Shown: in pieces, positions 47,212-57,113 of the stretch | Position numbering within the stretch: position 1 is the first letter of the stretch | Layout of the letters: the number at the start of each line of letters is the position of its first letter | NCBI GenBank assembly: GCA_902806065.1 | Contig: CADCVE010000037.1 | Location: 1 to 64,000 of the forward strand | DNA: 64,000 bases | From: an uncultured Rubrobacteraceae bacterium | GTDB taxonomy: Bacteria > Actinomycetota > Rubrobacteria > Rubrobacterales > Rubrobacteraceae | Reading direction: 5' to 3' | Notes under the pieces: generated by a model | Database searches by the model: none | What the model saw: only the letters and a program-made list of their open reading frames with translations | What the model was told of the DNA's origin: nothing | Program-made: the position numbers and the translations under genes

Positions 47212-48270
47212 CTAGATCGAGATGGTGTCGACGACGGCGCCGCCGTTGTCGAGAAGGGCGACCTGGTCCCCGGCTCCGACCGCGAGCGCTTCGCCGCCGG
47301 AGAAGGTACCGAGGGCCTCTCTCCCGTCGGCGTCCGTGACCCCGGGCTCGCGACCGATAGAGGCCGTCTCGCCGGGGGCGACCCTCACCTGCTCGGCTAT
47401 CCGAAGGACGGAGCCAGAGCTGTCTATGTCGCCGGTATCCGGGTCCTGCGGTTGGAGAGAGAAGCCCGAAAGATCCGCCTCCTCGTCGCCCTGATTGGTT
47501 ACCGTGACGTACTCTATGCCGCCCCCGCTCTCGGTAAGCTCTACCCGGTCGAGGACGACGTCTATGTCGCTGGAGTTTCCCCCTCCGACGTCAAAGCGCG
47601 TCAGGTCAAAGAGCGCCTGTTCCAGCACGCCCCGGTCCACGTACCCCTGGAACAGATTCTTGATGACATACCCCTCGGCCTGCGGCGCGAGCATTGCGAC
47701 GAACGGCGTGTAACCGACCTCGAGTTGGGCGGCGAGGGTACCGTACTCACCCCTCGCCAGGTCCTCGCTCGCCTCGGCCTCACCGGGCCGGCCGATATCG
47801 TAGGAAAAGAACTCGATCTGGGGATAGTCCGCTCGCAAGTCGCTCAGAGCCTGACCTACCTCTTCATCCGGTCCGATGCCCTGAGGGTACTCGATCCCGC
47901 GAGTAGAGTCCGGAGCCTCCTTCGAGAACTGCACCACAATAAGAGCCCTGCGCTGGTAGGCTGCCCTGAAGTCCGGCGGTACCGTCAACCGCTGATTGAG
48001 CTCGAACGGGGTATCTTCGAGGGTCTCAGCGTTGGTCTTCGACTCGACGGTCGCGCCACCAGGCGCATTCCCAGGAGGAGCAGCTTTCGGGTCGGCCGCT
48101 TTGTCCGGAGGCGGAGGCTCGGCTTTCTTGGCCTCTTCCCCACCACCGCCACAGCCCGCCACGAGAAGGATAACCGCCAGCGTCAGGACCGCCAGGATCG
48201 ATGCGGACCTCCGAACCAGTCCCCCGAAACCGCTTCCTTCGATGGTACTCTCCCTGTCCTCGACGCCCAC
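47212..48270 (-). CDS. Lipoprotein with C-terminal lamin-tail (LTD) domain
   Basis: The 352-residue product has an N-terminal hydrophobic helix ending in the lipobox LLVAGC (Cys near residue 40). A Pro/Ala/Lys-rich linker follows, then a middle part (about 88-235) with RRALIVVQFSKEAPDSTRGI, which resembles a thioredoxin-fold or redox-like strand order without a CxxC. The last about 110 residues, with VLDRVELTESGGGIEYVTVT, ADLSGFSLQPQD and DQVALLDNGGAVVDTISI, form a lamin-tail beta-sandwich often found on secreted bacterial proteins. It should be tethered to the outer face of the membrane. I do not know its function. Confidence 0.65.
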   Translation of the reverse strand: MGVEDRESTIEGSGFGGLVRRSASILAVLTLAVILLVAGCGGGGEEAKKAEPPPPDKAADPKAAPPGNAPGGATVESKTNAETLEDTPFELNQRLTVPPDFRAAYQRRALIVVQFSKEAPDSTRGIEYPQGIGPDEEVGQALSDLRADYPQIEFFSYDIGRPGEAEASEDLARGEYGTLAAQLEVGYTPFVAMLAPQAEGYVIKNLFQGYVDRGVLEQALFDLTRFDVGGGNSSDIDVVLDRVELTESGGGIEYVTVTNQGDEEADLSGFSLQPQDPDTGDIDSSGSVLRIAEQVRVAPGETASIGREPGVTDADGREALGTFSGGEALAVGAGDQVALLDNGGAVVDTISI

Positions 48271-50651: not shown

Positions 50652-51317
50652 ATGGTCACGCGCCCGGCGGTCTTTGATGCCTCCCCACGTCAACCCTGGG
50701 CCGCGCTGACCTTCGACGACGGCCCAGATCCGCTGTGGACGCCTCGCATCCTCGAAGCTCTGGACCATGCCGGTGCCCGCGCGACTTTTTTCGTCATCGC
50801 CCCACTCGCCGTCGAGTACCGTGACATCGTAGTCGCCGCGCGCGAGGCGGGCCACGGGATCGAGCTCCATTGCACCGCTCACGTACGCCATACGCGTTGC
50901 TCCCGCCGCGAGGTAGAGACCGACACGCGCGAGGGCCTCGAGATGCTGCGAAGCATAGGCATAGAGCCCCGGCTGTGGCGGCCACCTTGGGGAGTTCTCG
51001 CGCCCTGGACGGAGGAGATCGCTAGAGACTTCGGCCTCCGGCTCGCCCCCTGGAGCGCCGACACGCACGACTGGCGGGGCGACCCCGCCTCCGAGATGCT
51101 GAACGGTATAGAACCGCTTCTCGGCCCCGGCTCGATAGTGCTCATGCACGACGGGCTGGGACCAGGTTCCCTGAGGAGAGGCTGCCAGGAGACCGTCGCC
51201 CTCGTGCAACCTCTCGTCGCCCTCCTGCGCTCGATGGGCTGCGAACCTGCGGCCATGTTCCGAAACGAGCGCGCGCAATGGTTACCGGCGGCCGGGATCC
51301 GGAAGGCCAAAGCGTGA
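50652..51317 (+). CDS. NodB-type polysaccharide deacetylase
   Basis: The 221-residue product matches the CE4/NodB family, which removes N- or O-acetyl groups from glycans. Motifs in order are ALTFDDGPDPLWTP with the catalytic and metal Asp pair, IELHCTAHVRHT with the metal His-x3-His, LWRPPWGVLAPWT and IVLMHDGLG. Thus all main motifs are present; the usual Ser/Thr after the first His is Cys. There is no signal peptide, unlike many peptidoglycan deacetylases, which suggests a cytoplasmic substrate such as a lipid-linked or nucleotide-linked precursor. GAGAGG lies close before the ATG. Its stop overlaps the next gene's GTG (GTGA). Confidence 0.85.
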   Translation: MVTRPAVFDASPRQPWAALTFDDGPDPLWTPRILEALDHAGARATFFVIAPLAVEYRDIVVAAREAGHGIELHCTAHVRHTRCSRREVETDTREGLEMLRSIGIEPRLWRPPWGVLAPWTEEIARDFGLRLAPWSADTHDWRGDPASEMLNGIEPLLGPGSIVLMHDGLGPGSLRRGCQETVALVQPLVALLRSMGCEPAAMFRNERAQWLPAAGIRKAKA

Positions 51318-52480
51318 GGATGGCGCGGGAAGAGACACGGGCCGCGAACGGGAAGCCGGTGCAGCAGGCGGGACGCATCCTGCCCGGCTCCGCCGCCTTC
51401 GATGCAGTGCTCGCGCAGATCTCCGAAGGCGCGGCCAGCCGCGACAACGAACCGGCCTTCCCACACCGTCCGTTCCGGGTACTCGCGGAGGCAGGCCTCC
51501 TCGCCCTGCCCGTACCCGACCTCATGGAGGCGGGTGGACGGCGGGCCTCTTTCGGGGAGGAGTGGCGGGTCTTGAGGGCCGTCGCCGGTGCCGACGGGTC
51601 AGTCGGCAGGATCTTCGATGGCCACCTGAACGGCGTCGAGCGCGTGGCCGTCCTCGCACCCGAACCTCTGCGTACCAGGGAGCTAGAGGCAGTCGCCGCC
51701 GGAGATCTATTATTAGGGGTCTGGGGGGCCGACCCTATCCCCGGCGAAGGCACGCCTGCCCGTCTCGTAGAAACCCGCAACGGCTTGGTCCTCGAAGGCG
51801 TAAAGACGTTCTGCTCGGGCTCGACCGGCCTCCACCGGGCGCTCGTTGCCGTTCGCGGGACCGACGGCGCGCCCGGACCGCCACATCTGGCGTATGCGGA
51901 TCTGTCAGAGGGGGTCGAAGTAGACCGAGCGTGGTTCCAGGGGGCGGGGATGAGGTCTTCGGAGAGCCACCGGGTCGTCTTCGAGGGTGCGCCGGTACTC
52001 GCGGTGTTGGGAGAACCGGGAGAGCTAATTCGGGAGCCGTACTTCTCGCGGGACGCGATCCGCACTGCCGCTTCTTGGGCGGGGATCTCGGACCTCGCTG
52101 CAGACGCCGCGCTGGATACTCTAGCTGCCAAGTCTAACAGTAGCGAGCCGGACGACATCGTCTCCGTAGCCGCCGGCAGGATACTCACCGCGCGAGGAAC
52201 CATCGACCGCTGGTTGGATCATGCTTCGCGCGAGGCCGAAGCCAATCCGGAGAACTCGCTCGCGGACTTCGCCGTGCAGTTACGCGTAGCGGTCGCCGGG
52301 GCCTGCCGGGAGATACTGGACGAAGCGTCGCGCGCGTGCGGCTCGCACCCCTTCGCGGTCGCCGGCCCGCTTGACCGCGCCCGCCGCGACCTTCAGCTCT
52401 TTCTCCTCCAACACCGCCTCGAACCCGCACTGGCCCGCGCGGGACGCCGGACTATAATTGAGCGCGATCTAGGCACGTGA
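51314..52480 (+). CDS. Acyl-CoA dehydrogenase-like protein
   Basis: The 388-residue protein has the layout of the acyl-CoA dehydrogenase superfamily: an N-terminal helical part with RVLAEAGLLALPVPDLMEAG and GSVGRIFDGHLNGVERV, a beta middle domain with GLVLEGVKTFCSGSTGLHRA and GMRSSESHRVVFEGAPV, and a helical C-terminal domain with RAGRRTIIERDL. It is divergent, and I cannot identify the catalytic base with confidence. GTG 51314 has AAGG seven bases upstream and overlaps the deacetylase stop. In this cassette it may oxidise an acyl group or act as a nitrogen- or sugar-modifying flavoenzyme; this is inference. Confidence 0.75.
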   Translation: MRMAREETRAANGKPVQQAGRILPGSAAFDAVLAQISEGAASRDNEPAFPHRPFRVLAEAGLLALPVPDLMEAGGRRASFGEEWRVLRAVAGADGSVGRIFDGHLNGVERVAVLAPEPLRTRELEAVAAGDLLLGVWGADPIPGEGTPARLVETRNGLVLEGVKTFCSGSTGLHRALVAVRGTDGAPGPPHLAYADLSEGVEVDRAWFQGAGMRSSESHRVVFEGAPVLAVLGEPGELIREPYFSRDAIRTAASWAGISDLAADAALDTLAAKSNSSEPDDIVSVAAGRILTARGTIDRWLDHASREAEANPENSLADFAVQLRVAVAGACREILDEASRACGSHPFAVAGPLDRARRDLQLFLLQHRLEPALARAGRRTIIERDLGT

Positions 52481-52487
52481 GATTCTC

Positions 52488-53069
52488 GTGAGAGAGCGCC
52501 TAGACCGCGAATACTTCGAGAGCTTATACGAGCGGTCGCGCGACCCCTGGGACTTTGAGACCTCAGGGTACGAGCGCGAGAAATACACGCGCACCCTGGG
52601 CGTCCTCGCGCAACACCAGCGGAGCTACGGCAGGGCGCTGGAGGTGGGTTGCTCCATCGGTGTCTTCACGGCGATGCTCGCGCCTCTGTGCGAAGAAGTT
52701 TTGGCCGTGGACGTTTCGGAGAGGGCTCTCGCCGTGGCCCGTGCGAGGCTAAAAGACTCCCCGCACGTCCGGCTTGAGCCGCGCAGACTACCAGAGGAGA
52801 TGCCCGGGGGACCGTTCGACCTCATCGTCGCCTCAGAGGTCCTATACTACTGGCCCCGAGACTTGATGCTCGCGGCGTTGAGGCGCTTCGAGGAGGCTCT
52901 GGCGCCCGGCGGCGTGCTCCTCGCGATTCACTGGCGCGGGGAGACGAAAACCTATCCGCTCCAGGGAGACGAGGTGCACGAGCTGCTTTCAGAGAACACG
53001 CGGCTTACGAATACCGCCAGGATCGTGGAACCAGAGTACCGCCTCGACCTCTTCGAGGCTGCATTATGA
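52488..53069 (+). CDS. NodS-like SAM-dependent methyltransferase
   Basis: The 193-residue protein begins with the conserved YFESLYERSRDPWDFETSGY segment seen in NodS-type and related methyltransferases. It has the SAM loop ALEVGCSIGVFTAML near residue 50, then [15 protein letters not shown], and FDLIVASEVLYYW as motif IV. NodS N-methylates the deacetylated end of chitin oligomers in rhizobia, so a neighbour of NodB type is suggestive, but the real substrate here is unknown. It starts at GTG 52488 and overlaps the next gene by four bases (ATGA). Confidence 0.82.
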   Translation: MRERLDREYFESLYERSRDPWDFETSGYEREKYTRTLGVLAQHQRSYGRALEVGCSIGVFTAMLAPLCEEVLAVDVSERALAVARARLKDSPHVRLEPRRLPEEMPGGPFDLIVASEVLYYWPRDLMLAALRRFEEALAPGGVLLAIHWRGETKTYPLQGDEVHELLSENTRLTNTARIVEPEYRLDLFEAAL

Positions 53070-54247
53070 ACCTGAACGAGCGTATAGTGATAGTCGGCGG
53101 TGGCCCGGGTGGCCTCTCTGCTGCCCAGGCCTATCGCGAAGCCGGTGGGCGCGGAGAAGTCATTCTGCTCAGTGCCGAGAGCTACCTACCCTACGAGCGC
53201 CCCCCTCTCACCAAGGAATTCTTGCGCGGCGAGGTCGGACGGGACGAGTTGCCCATGCAGGAAGCGGCGTGGTTCGAGGAGAACAACGTAGAGCCAAGGA
53301 TCGCAACGACCGTCAACGCGCTCGACCGGGAGCGGCGCGTCCTGGAGACGGAGGACGGCGATGTCCCATATGACACCTGCGTATTGGCTACCGGCTCCGA
53401 GCCGATCCGGATACCCGTACCTGGTGGCGAGGACCCGGATATTCTGGTCATGCGCACCATCGAAAACTCGGAGCGCCTCAAGAGCCGCGTGGGTGAGGGG
53501 AGCACGGTAGTCGTCGTGGGTAGCGGCTTTATAGGCTGCGAGGCCGCGGTCTCCCTCTCGATGCGCGGAGCCCGAGTAACACTCGTCAGCCAGGAAGAGG
53601 GACCACAGAAGCAGCGCCTCGGCGAGGACGTCGCGCGGCGTATCGAGGGCTGGCTGGAGGGCTATGGCGTGGACCTGCGGCTGGGGACTAACGTCGAGGG
53701 GATAGAGCGCCGGGACGGCGGCTTCGAGGTAGCGGTTGGGGGTGGAGAGACAGTCTCCGCGGGGACTGTCTTGTTCGGTACTGGTGTCTCGCCGCGCACG
53801 CGTCTAGCCCGGGAAGCAGGGCTGGAGATCGAAGAAGGCGGCGTAGTTACCGACTCTTCGATGCGGACGAGCGCACCGGGTATCTTCGCCGTCGGCGACA
53901 TCGTATACGCCATGAACGAATCCGCCGGCCGCCGGCAGAAGGTCGAGCACTGGGGCGATGCCCTCACGCACGGGCGGATCGCCGGTACCGTGCTCGCGGG
54001 TGGTGAGGCGTCCTGGGACTCGGCGCCGGGGTTCTGGTCGGTGATGGGCGAGAAGACGCTGAAATACTGGGCCTGGAGCGGGGGCTGGGACGAGGCGAGG
54101 TTCGTGGACAAAGACGGACCCGATGGCGAGGCATTCACTGTCTGGTACGGTAAAGAGGGCGTCTGCGTCGGTGTATTGGCGCACAATGTGGACGAAGATT
54201 ACAACAACGGCCGCGAGCTAGTCGAGCAGAAATCTCCCCTGCCTTGA
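53066..54247 (+). CDS. FAD-dependent pyridine-nucleotide oxidoreductase
   Basis: The 393-residue product resembles ferredoxin-reductase-like flavoproteins. It has an FAD-binding start IVIVGGGPGGLSAAQAYREA, YLPYERPPLTKEFLRGE, the NAD(P)H loop TVVVVGSGFIGCEAAVSLSM near residue 150, and the second FAD block APGIFAVGDIVYAMNES near residue 270. The C-terminal dimerisation part reads EHWGDALTHGRIAGTVLAGG. The family passes electrons to ferredoxins or oxygenases; no oxygenase is next to it, so the acyl-CoA dehydrogenase-like protein is a possible partner. ATG 53066 overlaps the methyltransferase end; its own stop overlaps the next TTG. Confidence 0.85.
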   Translation: MNLNERIVIVGGGPGGLSAAQAYREAGGRGEVILLSAESYLPYERPPLTKEFLRGEVGRDELPMQEAAWFEENNVEPRIATTVNALDRERRVLETEDGDVPYDTCVLATGSEPIRIPVPGGEDPDILVMRTIENSERLKSRVGEGSTVVVVGSGFIGCEAAVSLSMRGARVTLVSQEEGPQKQRLGEDVARRIEGWLEGYGVDLRLGTNVEGIERRDGGFEVAVGGGETVSAGTVLFGTGVSPRTRLAREAGLEIEEGGVVTDSSMRTSAPGIFAVGDIVYAMNESAGRRQKVEHWGDALTHGRIAGTVLAGGEASWDSAPGFWSVMGEKTLKYWAWSGGWDEARFVDKDGPDGEAFTVWYGKEGVCVGVLAHNVDEDYNNGRELVEQKSPLP

Positions 54248-55932
54248 GCGCCGGACACGTTGCCCTCCCGCCGCCCCACCCGGCGCTCAAGGTCTGTGTG
54301 GTCGTCCCGGCTCGTAATGAGGAGGCGCTCATAGGTTCCTGCCTGCGGTCTCTCGCGGAACAGGAAGACATCTCCTTCGCGGAGTTCGAGGTCTTGCTGG
54401 TCCTGGACCGGTGTACGGACGCGACCGGGGAGCGGGCGCTGGAGGTAGCCACCGAGTATCCGGATCTTTGCCTATACACACTCGAAGGTCCGGGCCGGGG
54501 AGCGGGGCATGCCCGCAGGCTGGGGATGGAGGAGGCACGCGGGCGGCTGATGAGCCTGGACCGTCCAGATGGGCTTATCGCTTCGACGGATGCGGACACG
54601 GTGGTAGCCTCGAACTGGCTCTCCATGCAGCTCGAAGCGGCGGCCCGGGGCGCGAAGGCGATCGGGGGTCATATAGAGCTCCGGGATGAGGCGAACCTTC
54701 CCCGAGGCGTCTCCAGCTGGCGCGATGAGCAGGGGCGTTTGAGACAAGATGCGCTGCTCTCGCCCCCCGGCCCCAATGGCGAATCCCGCGCGCGGACGGA
54801 GCACTGGCGGTTCAGTGGCGCCTCACTCGCCCTCACGGCGGTGACATACCAGGAGATCGGAGGGCTGGAGCCTCGCGCGGCCCTGGAGGACGAACACCTG
54901 GAACGCACACTCGAAAGCCGCGGCGTCCCCATCGAACGTCCGCTCGCCGTAAAGGTCGCTACCTCCGCCCGGCTCGTCGGACGCGCGAAGAGAGGGCTCG
55001 CCCGGGACCTGGCGCTCGCATCCTGGGTCCGCAACAACACATACGACGCTTACGACTTCGACCCCGACGAGCTTCTAGAACTAAAGCTCTCCTCGGGGAC
55101 CTCCGTGAGTGCCGTGATCCCAACACGGGGAAAGGGCCGCGGGACGCCCGCCCTACTCAATACTCTAGGACCGCTCGCGGAGGCCAGTATCATCGATGAG
55201 ATGATCGTATTGCGTACGGAGGAGGGGAACGACTCGACCAACCTCTTCACTGAAGCGCACGTGAAGTTCTACCGCGACGCGGACCTCATGCCCGAATTCG
55301 GGCCTGTACGAGGCTACGGCGATGCGTTGTGGCGAGGGCTCTCGGCGGCCAGAGGAGAGGTCTTGTTGTTCCTCGACCCGAGCGTGACGGACCCCGGAGG
55401 GCGCCGAGCCCTGGGCCTGTTAGGCCCCCTACTCTCGCGGCAGGACTTGCGCTTCGTCAAGGGCTTCTCCACGGCGCCCACCGGCGAACCGGCCACCGGA
55501 ACCAGAGACCTCGACGAGCTGTTGGCGCGGCCTCTGATCAACGTGTACCATCCCGAGCTTGCCGGCTTTACCGAACCACTCTCACCCGAGTTCGCCGCCC
55601 GGCGCGCTCTACTCTCGTCCCTCCCCTTCCCCGCCGGCTACGGTGCCGCCCTGAGCCTCCTCCTCGATGCCGCAGAGGCAGTGGGCGTTCCGGCCCTCGC
55701 TCAAACCCAACTCGATCCGCGCCCCGCAACCGCCGTCCCTCTGCCGGACCTGTCCGAGGCCGCCTACGCCATCCTCGTCGCCGCTACCGCCCGCGCCTAT
55801 GGCGACGAAGACCTCGACGAGCGCGCCCCAGGACCGCTCTTCCTGCCGCTCCCGACACGCGCCGCAAGTACCACGGGCTTCACCCAGCGACGCGTCGCTA
55901 TCGAGGAACGTCCGCCTCTCGGTTCCCTCTAG
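54244..55932 (+). CDS. Two-domain glycosyltransferase (GT2 plus GpgS-like)
   Basis: This 562-residue protein carries two transferase modules. Residues about 15-260 are GT2: VCVVVPARNEEALIGSCLRS, LLVLDRCTDATGERA, IASTDADTVVASNWLSMQL (DAD) and EHLERTLESRG. Residues about 275-520 resemble glucosyl-3-phosphoglycerate synthases: VRGYGDALWRGLSAARGEVL, LFLDPSVTDPGGRRALGLLG, ARPLINVYHPELAGFTEPLS and LLSSLPFPAGYGAALSLLLD. The nucleotide-sugar loop of the second half is altered (VLRTEEGNDST), so it may be inactive or specific for another donor. Related GT81-type synthases make compatible-solute precursors in Rubrobacter, by general knowledge. It starts at a TTG overlapping the oxidoreductase stop. Confidence 0.8.
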   Translation: MSAGHVALPPPHPALKVCVVVPARNEEALIGSCLRSLAEQEDISFAEFEVLLVLDRCTDATGERALEVATEYPDLCLYTLEGPGRGAGHARRLGMEEARGRLMSLDRPDGLIASTDADTVVASNWLSMQLEAAARGAKAIGGHIELRDEANLPRGVSSWRDEQGRLRQDALLSPPGPNGESRARTEHWRFSGASLALTAVTYQEIGGLEPRAALEDEHLERTLESRGVPIERPLAVKVATSARLVGRAKRGLARDLALASWVRNNTYDAYDFDPDELLELKLSSGTSVSAVIPTRGKGRGTPALLNTLGPLAEASIIDEMIVLRTEEGNDSTNLFTEAHVKFYRDADLMPEFGPVRGYGDALWRGLSAARGEVLLFLDPSVTDPGGRRALGLLGPLLSRQDLRFVKGFSTAPTGEPATGTRDLDELLARPLINVYHPELAGFTEPLSPEFAARRALLSSLPFPAGYGAALSLLLDAAEAVGVPALAQTQLDPRPATAVPLPDLSEAAYAILVAATARAYGDEDLDERAPGPLFLPLPTRAASTTGFTQRRVAIEERPPLGSL

Positions 55933-55945
55933 TAGCGGCGTTGAC

Positions 55946-55983
55946 ACCTCCGAACACATATGTAAACTGCATGGTTCGGAGGT
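55946..55983 (+). terminator. Possible hairpin terminator after the glycosyltransferase operon
   Basis: ACCTCCGAAC (55946-55955) and GTTCGGAGGT (55974-55983) are perfect inverted repeats separated by 18 bases, 14 bases after the glycosyltransferase stop. The following TGTATCTGTAGTTTATT is T-rich but not a run. An operator role is also possible because TTGACA (55941-55946) overlaps the left arm. Confidence 0.4.
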
Positions 55984-56046: not shown

Positions 56047-56268
56047 ATGCTTAGCGCGGTAAGAACAGGCGGAGTGGTCAGGCGGATGGCGCTGGGCATG
56101 CGGGGTACCTTAAAGACCGCCCTCGCCAGCGGCCCGGACCAGGAGTCCATCTCTCTAGGCGCCGGACACGTCGGCCTTCTCGTCAGGCCGGAGGCCATGG
56201 GCGGGCTCTGGCCGCGGTCCGGGATTGGCTTGCGCCACGCTCCGCAAGACAGGAGGAATAGCTGGTGA
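56047..56268 (+). pseudogene. Remnant of a PHA-synthase-like (PhaC) C-terminus
   Basis: The 73-residue frame ends with SLGAGHVGLLVRPEAMGGLW followed by PRSG, which resembles the C-terminal GGHxGLLVGxxAxxELWP block of polyhydroxyalkanoate synthases and related alpha/beta hydrolases. The nucleophile and Asp regions are absent, so this is only a tail. The ATG at 56047 and the upstream part have no match. Its TGA overlaps the GTG of the methyltransferase (GTGA), so it may remain from an operon in which PhaC preceded the methyltransferase, and it may still couple translation. Confidence 0.4.
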
Positions 56269-57113
56269 CCGTACATCCTACATCCAACCCCGTGGCCCCG
56301 ACTTCACGGTGGATGGCCGCGGCACGGGCCAGGGAGAGCGAACGGCCGGATCGCCTGTTCGACGACCCGCTCGCGGCGGCGCTCGCCGGTCCCGAGGGAT
56401 TCGCGTGGCTGGAGCGCATGGAAGCCGCCGCGCAGTCGAGCGGGCCGGGGCTGTACCCCGTGATCCGCACCCGCTTCTTCGACGACTTTCTGCTGAAAGC
56501 CTGTAAAGAATCCGGGATCCGCCAGGTAGTCCTCGCGGCGGCCGGCCTGGACACCCGCGCTTTTCGCCTGGAGTGGCCGTCAAATACGCAGTTATACGAA
56601 CTGGACCTACCCGAGGTGTTGGATGCCAAAGACGCCGTGATCGAGGCCGCAGGAGCAAGGGCAAACTGTGAGCGGCATACCGTCAGAGTAGATCTCAAGG
56701 AGACCGACTGGCCGAAGGCGCTCCTTACCGCTGGCTACCGTCCGGAGAGTGAGTCAGTTTGGCTCATAGAAGGTCTCCTGTTTTACCTGACCTGGAACGA
56801 CGTGCATGGGCTCCTGGAGAAGGTAAGCACGCTAACGGCGGTCGGCAGCTACCTCGGACTAGACGTGATGAACACGGGACTGTTCTTCTCCCCGGTGGCA
56901 TGGCCAATGATGGCCGCCCTTGCCCGGCGTGGCGCAACTGGACGCTTCGGGACCAACGCTCCAGAGAAGTTGACAGCCATTCACGGCTGGGAGACGAACG
57001 TAACGCAGCCCGGCGAGGAGGGCGCGAACTTCGGTCGATGGCCCCGGCCGATGCTACCCCGGAAAATACCTGGCGTGCCGCGAAGCTTCCTGGTCACGGC
57101 GCGCCGCACGTAG
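56265..57113 (+). CDS. Class I SAM-dependent methyltransferase, TIGR00027/LCMT type
   Basis: The 282-residue protein has features of the actinobacterial LCMT-like methyltransferases. These are TSRWMAAARARESERPDRLF at the start, the RTRFFDDFLLKACKE helix, the SAM loop QVVLAAAGLDTRAFRLEWPS, YELDLPEVLDAKDAV, VRVDLKETDWPKALLTAGY and the motif ESVWLIEGLLFYLTWNDVHG. The methyl acceptor is unknown for this family, which is often tied to secondary metabolism. The GTG at 56265 has AGGAGG eight bases upstream. Confidence 0.88.
   Translation: MTVHPTSNPVAPTSRWMAAARARESERPDRLFDDPLAAALAGPEGFAWLERMEAAAQSSGPGLYPVIRTRFFDDFLLKACKESGIRQVVLAAAGLDTRAFRLEWPSNTQLYELDLPEVLDAKDAVIEAAGARANCERHTVRVDLKETDWPKALLTAGYRPESESVWLIEGLLFYLTWNDVHGLLEKVSTLTAVGSYLGLDVMNTGLFFSPVAWPMMAALARRGATGRFGTNAPEKLTAIHGWETNVTQPGEEGANFGRWPRPMLPRKIPGVPRSFLVTARRT

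What the first reader, a model, noticed from the sequence alone, without database searches (positions are those of the whole stretch)
50652..55932. Five overlapping genes form an unassigned glycan-type cassette
Seen: a NodB-type deacetylase, an acyl-CoA dehydrogenase-like protein, a NodS-like methyltransferase, an FAD oxidoreductase and a double glycosyltransferase; three of the four junctions overlap by four bases and the other gap is seven bases. A possible hairpin ends the set. Known: NodB and NodS act in sequence on chitin oligomers in rhizobia, and GpgS-type transferases make glucosylglycerate or mannosylglycerate precursors. Inference: the cassette deacetylates, methylates and oxidises a sugar or glycolipid that the double transferase builds. 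The absence of a signal peptide on the deacetylase suggests an intracellular substrate. I know of no described pathway with exactly this set.
Basis: partly seen in the sequence, partly recalled or inferred. Interest (0 to 1): 0.7.

Follow-up and report, generated by a model that had tools for sequence, protein, structure and literature searches.

The report
Amino-sugar cassette with swapped deacetylase
Five co-transcribed genes in a desert-type bacterium (Rubrobacter) are a variant of an undescribed sugar-modifying gene set found in many phyla; here an unrelated enzyme has replaced the usual one for the acetyl-removing step, which points to that step as essential to the pathway.

Summary
They keep the same order across the Rubrobacteraceae (22 neighbourhoods read) and in Solirubrobacter and Conexibacter, so the cassette idea holds. 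The wider picture is new. Its core (GT2 transferase, ACAD-fold flavoprotein, NodS-like methyltransferase) recurs in Hymenobacter/Spirosoma, cyanobacteria, Deinococcus, alphaproteobacteria, Acinetobacter, Microbacteriaceae and Verrucomicrobia. There the deacetylase is a PIG-L (CE14, BshB1-like) enzyme and the FAD reductase is missing. In 80 loci NodB and PIG-L never occur together (10 NodB+reductase, 65 PIG-L, 2 cut by contig ends, 3 with neither). Trees of the three shared proteins each need only one switch. This is a non-orthologous replacement of a de-N-acetylase, so amine release is probably the pathway's key step. Two labels need correcting. The 'acyl-CoA dehydrogenase' lacks the acyl-CoA base and is closest to group D flavin monooxygenases (DszC, and the amino-sugar N-oxygenases KijD3/DnmZ). 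The second 'transferase' domain has lost its DXD motif and is absent from about half of the Rubrobacter cassettes. Best reading: an N-acetylhexosamine is transferred, deacetylated, N-methylated and oxidised by the flavoprotein. Substrate and product are unknown; no described pathway was found.

The parts
50652..51317 (+). NodB-type CE4 de-N-acetylase (Polysacc_deac_1), 221 aa, no hydrophobic N-terminus
   Evidence: PF01522 3.3e-23. CE4 motifs TFDDGP, HxxxH, R[PTV]PWG, D[TS]xDW and [AM]HD[GA] hold in the cassette NodBs aligned, with one exception (motif 4 D to G in L053). NodB equivalog 108.7 bits against a cutoff of 240.
51314..52480 (+). ACAD-fold flavoprotein, probably group D flavin monooxygenase-like (GTG start 51314, or ATG 51320 / 51278)
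   Evidence: Family profile best matches DszC 1.2e-38, MsuC, KijD3, DnmZ. AF2 pLDDT 93, Foldseek to flavin monooxygenases and ACADs. H102, S166 and Q364 invariant; no Glu at the YEG position in 45 sequences.
52488..53069 (+). NodS-like class I SAM methyltransferase, 193 aa
   Evidence: PF05401 2.6e-20. Family profile matches NodS crystal structure 3ofj 1e-29 and 4isc 1.7e-50. True NodS shares about 44% identity over residues 19-121.
53066..54247 (+). FAD/NAD(P)H reductase of the HcaD/AndAa (ferredoxin reductase) type, found only in NodB-type cassettes
   Evidence: PF07992 5.9e-61; best NCBIfam HcaD 208 bits against a cutoff of 450; adjacent in 12 of 12 Rubrobacteria/Thermoleophilia loci and 0 of 65 PIG-L loci.
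54244..55020 (+). GT2 glycosyltransferase domain, the conserved core transferase
   Evidence: PF00535 3.2e-22; TDAD and ED motifs conserved in 36 orthologues across phyla; AF2 pLDDT 91 with GT-A matches.
55021..55932 (+). C-terminal GpgS/MpgS-like domain, degenerate
   Evidence: Matches MpgS 3f1y 5.2e-46 and GpgS 208.6 bits against a cutoff of 262, but DXD reads LDPSVTD; intact in Thermoleophilia (LDADTED), absent in many Rubrobacter cassettes.
55946..55983 (+). 10-bp perfect inverted repeat with 18-nt loop just after the last stop; no T-run; next to a sigma70-like -35 box at 55941

Best explanation
The five genes make one pathway that builds a modified amino-sugar conjugate inside the cell. 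Shown by comparison: they are the Rubrobacteria/Thermoleophilia form of a cross-phylum cassette (GT2 transferase, de-N-acetylase, NodS-like methyltransferase, ACAD-fold flavoprotein), in which a CE4 NodB-type deacetylase stands in place of the usual unrelated PIG-L deacetylase and an FAD reductase has been added. Inferred order: the GT2 domain transfers an N-acetylhexosamine (probably GlcNAc) to an unknown acceptor; NodB removes the acetyl group; the NodS-like enzyme N-methylates the freed amine; the ACAD-fold flavoprotein oxidises the product, most likely at or next to that nitrogen, with reduced flavin or electrons supplied by the FAD reductase. The GpgS-like domain is a decaying leftover and is not needed.
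For: Conserved order in the Rubrobacteraceae and in Solirubrobacter/Conexibacter. Of 80 loci, 65 are PIG-L type without the reductase, 10 are NodB plus reductase, none has both; two further reductase-bearing loci are cut by contig ends. ACAD, NodS and GT trees each need a single NodB/PIG-L switch (SH-aLRT 99, 93, 93). The window's genome has no PIG-L protein at all, and many cassette-bearing relatives also lack it. CE4 catalytic motifs are intact. The PIG-L member is BshB1-like, i.e. related to a GlcNAc-conjugate deacetylase. The methyltransferase is homologous to NodS. A cyanobacterial 1158-aa protein fuses GT2, a NodS-type methyltransferase and a CE4 deacetylase, an independent functional link. 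The ACAD-fold family is nearest to group D monooxygenases, including amino-sugar N-oxygenases; group D enzymes share the ACAD fold and include N-hydroxylases (PMC6165268).
Against: No substrate, product or phenotype is known. GT2 donor specificity cannot be read from the model, since the best matches use GDP- and UDP-sugars alike. Methylation could be on oxygen rather than nitrogen. The third active-site residue of DszC, a histidine, is Gln here, so oxygenase chemistry is not assured. PIG-L cassettes have no dedicated reductase. Three loci (L090, L124, L136) have neither deacetylase within reach.
Confidence: 0.55

Rival explanations
1. Same cassette and same deacetylase swap, but the flavoprotein is a dehydrogenase/oxidase acting on an acyl group or a sugar carbon of a glycolipid, so the product is a modified glycolipid rather than an N-oxidised amino sugar.
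For: The overall fold is shared with true acyl-CoA dehydrogenases; Thermus ACAD 1ws9 is the best single-sequence PDB hit. GT2 enzymes often act on lipid carriers; weak HpnB resemblance.
Against: No Glu at the YEG position in any of 45 members. The family profile prefers DszC/MsuC over the best true ACADs by about 15-40 bits. No fatty-acid genes recur in the cassettes.
Confidence: 0.25
2. It is a Nod-factor-like or cell-surface oligosaccharide pathway: NodB and NodS act on a chitin-like oligomer made by the GT2 enzyme, as in rhizobia.
For: True NodB and NodS are the nearest characterised relatives of two members. A GT2+NodS+CE4 fusion exists.
Against: Scores are far below the NodB and NodS equivalog cutoffs. 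There is no NodA, no NodC-type processive synthase and no exporter in the cassette. PIG-L replaces NodB elsewhere, and characterised PIG-L enzymes mostly act on single GlcNAc conjugates (general knowledge).
Confidence: 0.15
3. Two units sit side by side: NodB-ACAD-NodS-GT as the pathway, while the FAD reductase is a general electron-transfer gene that only shares the transcript.
For: The reductase is missing from all 65 PIG-L cassettes. Its nearest families serve Rieske dioxygenases.
Against: It lies between NodS and GT, with overlapping ends or close spacing, in every NodB-type locus where that stretch is held and the cassette is not decayed.
Confidence: 0.2

Closest known systems
PIG-L-type cassette: GT2 / 'acyl-CoA dehydrogenase' / PIG-L / NodS-like methyltransferase (Hymenobacter, Nostoc, Deinococcus, Roseivivax, Acinetobacter and others); annotated gene by gene, function undescribed as far as found
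   Same: Orthologous GT2 (31-36% identity), ACAD-fold protein (23-30%) and NodS-like methyltransferase (34-44%), adjacent or in one operon
   Different: Deacetylase is PIG-L (CE14) instead of CE4; no FAD reductase; no GpgS-like domain; GT often on the opposite strand
Nod factor core NodC-NodB-NodS of rhizobia
   Same: Glycosyltransferase, CE4 deacetylase and NodS-type methyltransferase acting in sequence
   Different: No NodA or processive chitin synthase; extra flavoprotein and reductase; sub-cutoff NodB and NodS scores
Bacillithiol/mycothiol first half (BshA-BshB, MshA-MshB)
   Same: GT plus de-N-acetylase that frees GlcN from a GlcNAc conjugate; the cassette PIG-L is BshB1-like
   Different: GT2 instead of a GT4-type BshA/MshA; methyltransferase and flavoprotein instead of a cysteine ligase; CE4 deacetylase here
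Group D (ACAD-fold) flavin monooxygenases DszC, MsuC, KijD3, DnmZ
   Same: Fold, and the His (DszC GYH) and Ser (FCSG) active-site positions, invariant in 45 members
   Different: The C-terminal His of DszC is an invariant Gln; substrate unknown
Rubrobacter xylanophilus MpgS / mycobacterial GpgS
   Same: Sequence family of the C-terminal domain
   Different: DXD and neighbouring catalytic stretches lost in the window; the domain is dispensable in the family

Membership tests
NodB chitooligosaccharide deacetylase | CE4 (NodB homology) catalytic motifs | tested here: met
   TFDDGP, HxxxH, RPPWG, DTHDW, LMHDG in the window; conserved in the relatives aligned apart from one substitution in L053
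NodB chitooligosaccharide deacetylase | score above the TIGR04243 equivalog cutoff | tested here: not met
   108.7 against 240 bits
NodS nodulation methyltransferase | score above the NF041650 equivalog cutoff | tested here: not met
   88.7 against 300 bits
NodS-like methyltransferase superfamily | homology to NodS structure 3ofj / PF05401 | tested here: met
   1e-29 for the family profile; PF05401 2.6e-20
Acyl-CoA dehydrogenase (SCAD/MCAD type) | catalytic Glu in the (I/Y)xEG(T/S)-type motif after the C-terminal RD | tested here: not met
   Position 365 is P (33) or H (12) in 45 sequences; real ACADs from the same genomes have GEGT/YEGT
Group D flavin monooxygenase | ACAD fold with nearest profile/structure kin in the group | tested here: met
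   DszC 1.2e-38 best; Foldseek rank 1 a flavin-containing monooxygenase 3.4e-16, but true ACADs score nearly as well
Group D flavin monooxygenase | DszC-like active-site His, Ser and C-terminal His | tested here: inconclusive
   First two invariant, third is Gln; the functional role of these residues in DszC is from memory
Group D flavin monooxygenase | uses reduced flavin and O2 | not testable with these tools
   needs enzyme assay
GpgS / MpgS | intact GT-A DXD and substrate motifs | tested here: not met
   LDPSVTD in the window against LDADTED in Thermoleophilia; 208.6 bits, cutoff 262
Cross-phylum GT2 / ACAD / de-N-acetylase / NodS-like cassette | orthologous GT2, ACAD-fold and NodS-like genes together | tested here: met
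Cross-phylum GT2 / ACAD / de-N-acetylase / NodS-like cassette | PIG-L deacetylase | tested here: not met
   NodB instead; no PIG-L in the genome; hence a variant form
Known anti-phage system | PADLOC system match | tested here: not met
   Only the methyltransferase domain of mad2, at 2.6e-19

The most novel reading that the evidence does not exclude
The cassette makes an intracellular N-methylated, N-oxygenated (hydroxylamine- or nitrone-type) glucosamine conjugate, a new class of small redox-protective metabolite used by sun-, drought- and radiation-exposed bacteria of many phyla. Rubrobacteria re-invented its deacetylation step with an unrelated enzyme.
Probability: 0.12. Interest if true: 0.85.

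Novelty: new variant of a known kind. Interest (0 to 1): 0.6.

Why it matters
A four-step gene set spread over at least six phyla, including Deinococcus radiodurans, has no described product that could be found. The swap of one de-N-acetylase for a structurally unrelated one is a natural experiment. It says which chemical step is indispensable and points to an N-acetylated sugar as substrate, so the pathway becomes testable by simple cross-complementation and targeted metabolomics. It also shows that routine names ('acyl-CoA dehydrogenase', 'nodulation protein S') hide the pathway.

Tried and rejected
Active 'double transferase' making glucosyl- or mannosylglycerate: rejected, because the DXD motif is degenerate, the domain is lost in many relatives, and separate GpgS/MpgS-like proteins lie elsewhere in the genome. 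Canonical acyl-CoA dehydrogenase: rejected. Terminator at the end hairpin: not supported. Further conserved partners: clustering 1087 ORFs from 80 loci found no partner shared across phyla beyond the core; the other recurring neighbours are local Hymenobacter or Rubrobacter synteny. Stress-gene linkage: catalase, Dps, Ku/LigD or trehalose genes lie near 12 of 17 annotated plasmid cassettes, but a narrower search found such genes near only 6 of 80 chromosomal loci; weak evidence only. GT2 donor from structure: undecided. Defence system: no. Ten literature searches found no description of the cassette (two were about the flavoprotein).
Full report
What is there. The window lies in a 3.75-Mb Rubrobacteraceae draft genome. 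The five genes run on one strand from 50652 to 55932 with tight junctions: a CE4/NodB-type deacetylase, an ACAD-fold protein, a NodS-like methyltransferase, an FAD-dependent reductase, and a GT2 transferase with an appended GpgS-like domain. A 10-bp perfect inverted repeat follows the last stop, but it has no T-run, is only 1.9 standard deviations better than shuffles, and lies next to a sigma70-like -35 box, so it cannot be called a terminator.

Conservation in the family. A strong match to the cassette's ACAD-fold gene (E below 1e-20) is present in 26 of 40 genomes of the class. In 22 neighbourhoods read, NodB, ACAD and NodS lie in the same order in 21 (the other is cut by a contig end before NodB). 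The reductase and GT follow wherever the contig continues, except in L053, where the cassette looks decayed. It often sits between AspS and HisS, but in several genomes it is elsewhere, and in R. indicoceani it is on a plasmid, so co-inheritance is not just frozen synteny.

The wider family. tblastn against plasmids and one scan of GTDB genomes with a NodS-family alignment brought in the same GT2, ACAD-fold and NodS-like genes from Bacteroidota, Cyanobacteriota, Deinococcota, Pseudomonadota, Actinomycetota and Verrucomicrobiota. In these the deacetylase is PIG-L. Of 80 genome loci, 65 have PIG-L without the reductase, 10 have NodB with it, 2 more have the reductase but are cut by contig ends on the NodB side, 3 have neither deacetylase nearby, and none has both. 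The NodB form is confined to Rubrobacteria and Thermoleophilia in this sample. Trees of ACAD, NodS and GT each separate NodB-type from PIG-L-type by one branch (SH-aLRT 99, 93 and 93, quick method), so one replacement is enough. The root is not inferred, so the direction (PIG-L replaced by NodB) rests on the wider distribution of PIG-L. The window's own genome holds no PIG-L family protein, and many cassette-bearing relatives have none, so if the step is needed, NodB must do it there.

What the proteins say. All five CE4 motifs are intact in the window and conserved in the cassette NodBs aligned, apart from one substitution in the decayed cassette L053. The methyltransferase family is nearest to an uncharacterised structure (4isc) and then to NodS itself (3ofj), and real rhizobial NodS proteins match at about 44% identity over the SAM domain. 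The ACAD-fold family profile scores best against the monooxygenases DszC, MsuC and TdsC, with the amino-sugar N-oxygenases KijD3 and DnmZ also matched. The AlphaFold model (pLDDT 93) matches flavin monooxygenases first, with true ACADs close behind, so the fold alone does not decide. The residues help: the His and Ser that align with DszC positions are invariant in 45 sequences, the position of the acyl-CoA dehydrogenase Glu is Pro or His, and the neighbouring residue is an invariant Gln. A review confirms that group D monooxygenases share this fold and include N-hydroxylation (PMC6165268). The GT2 domain is well conserved, but its donor cannot be read from structure matches. The appended GpgS-like domain keeps DXD in Solirubrobacter/Conexibacter (LDADTED, LDTDTED), has lost it in the window (LDPSVTD) and two relatives, and is missing where the GT is only 261-265 aa long.

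Mechanism. The most economical reading is a pathway that adds an N-acetylhexosamine to an acceptor, removes the acetyl group, methylates the amine and oxidises the product. The order follows from enzyme logic: NodS acts after NodB in rhizobia, and PIG-L partners such as MshB and BshB act after a GT (general knowledge). It is inferred, not shown. Independent support comes from a cyanobacterial protein that fuses GT2, a NodS-type methyltransferase and a CE4 deacetylase. The reductase may feed the flavoprotein, but it is confined to the NodB form.

Limits. The acceptor, donor, methylation site and oxidation chemistry are unknown. A link with stress genes is seen near 12 of 17 annotated plasmid cassettes but, with a narrower query set, near only 6 of 80 chromosomal loci, so it stays a hint. 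The sample of 80 loci is the best-scoring subset of 592 and is rich in Hymenobacter. Literature searches covered only open-licence PMC papers.

Noticed in passing
L159:3961-7437 (Gloeothece verrucosa plasmid Cy782201): A 1158-aa protein fuses GT2, a NodS-type methyltransferase and a CE4 polysaccharide deacetylase.
   Followed up: partly
L155:3798-10202 (Deinococcus radiodurans plasmid 3): ACAD-fold, PIG-L and NodS-like genes are present; the ACAD-fold gene is about 780 aa and a helicase gene on the other strand sits between PIG-L and the methyltransferase. In Deinococcus sp. AJ005 (L057) the extra N-terminal half resembles a glycosyl hydrolase by eye.
   Followed up: no
G002, G028, G034 (L050, L051, L049); L071; L122: The cassette ACAD-fold gene is split or frameshifted, through assembly errors or decay.
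   Followed up: no
L053 (G007): The cassette looks decayed: NodB and NodS remain, the ACAD-fold gene is a fragment, and the reductase and GT are missing.
   Followed up: no
L090, L124, L136: Cassettes in Spirosoma, a verrucomicrobial MAG and Methylobacterium with neither PIG-L nor NodB nearby.
   Followed up: partly
L146 (G000:C43) and L147 (G000:C22): The genome has two stand-alone MpgS/GpgS-like proteins, one with intact DXD and one degenerate (DVEAP).
   Followed up: partly
56265-57113: A TIGR00027 SAM methyltransferase (LCM family) lies just downstream of the cassette on the same strand; it is not conserved with it.
   Followed up: partly
47212-48270 (-): A lipoprotein-like protein with a possible lamin-tail-like C-terminus (by eye) beside a cysteine desulfurase.
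   Followed up: no
L148, L153, L156 (sphingomonad and Paracoccus plasmids): PIG-L cassettes sit in larger clusters with two or three extra glycosyltransferases, suggesting a larger glycan or glycoside in these hosts.
   Followed up: no
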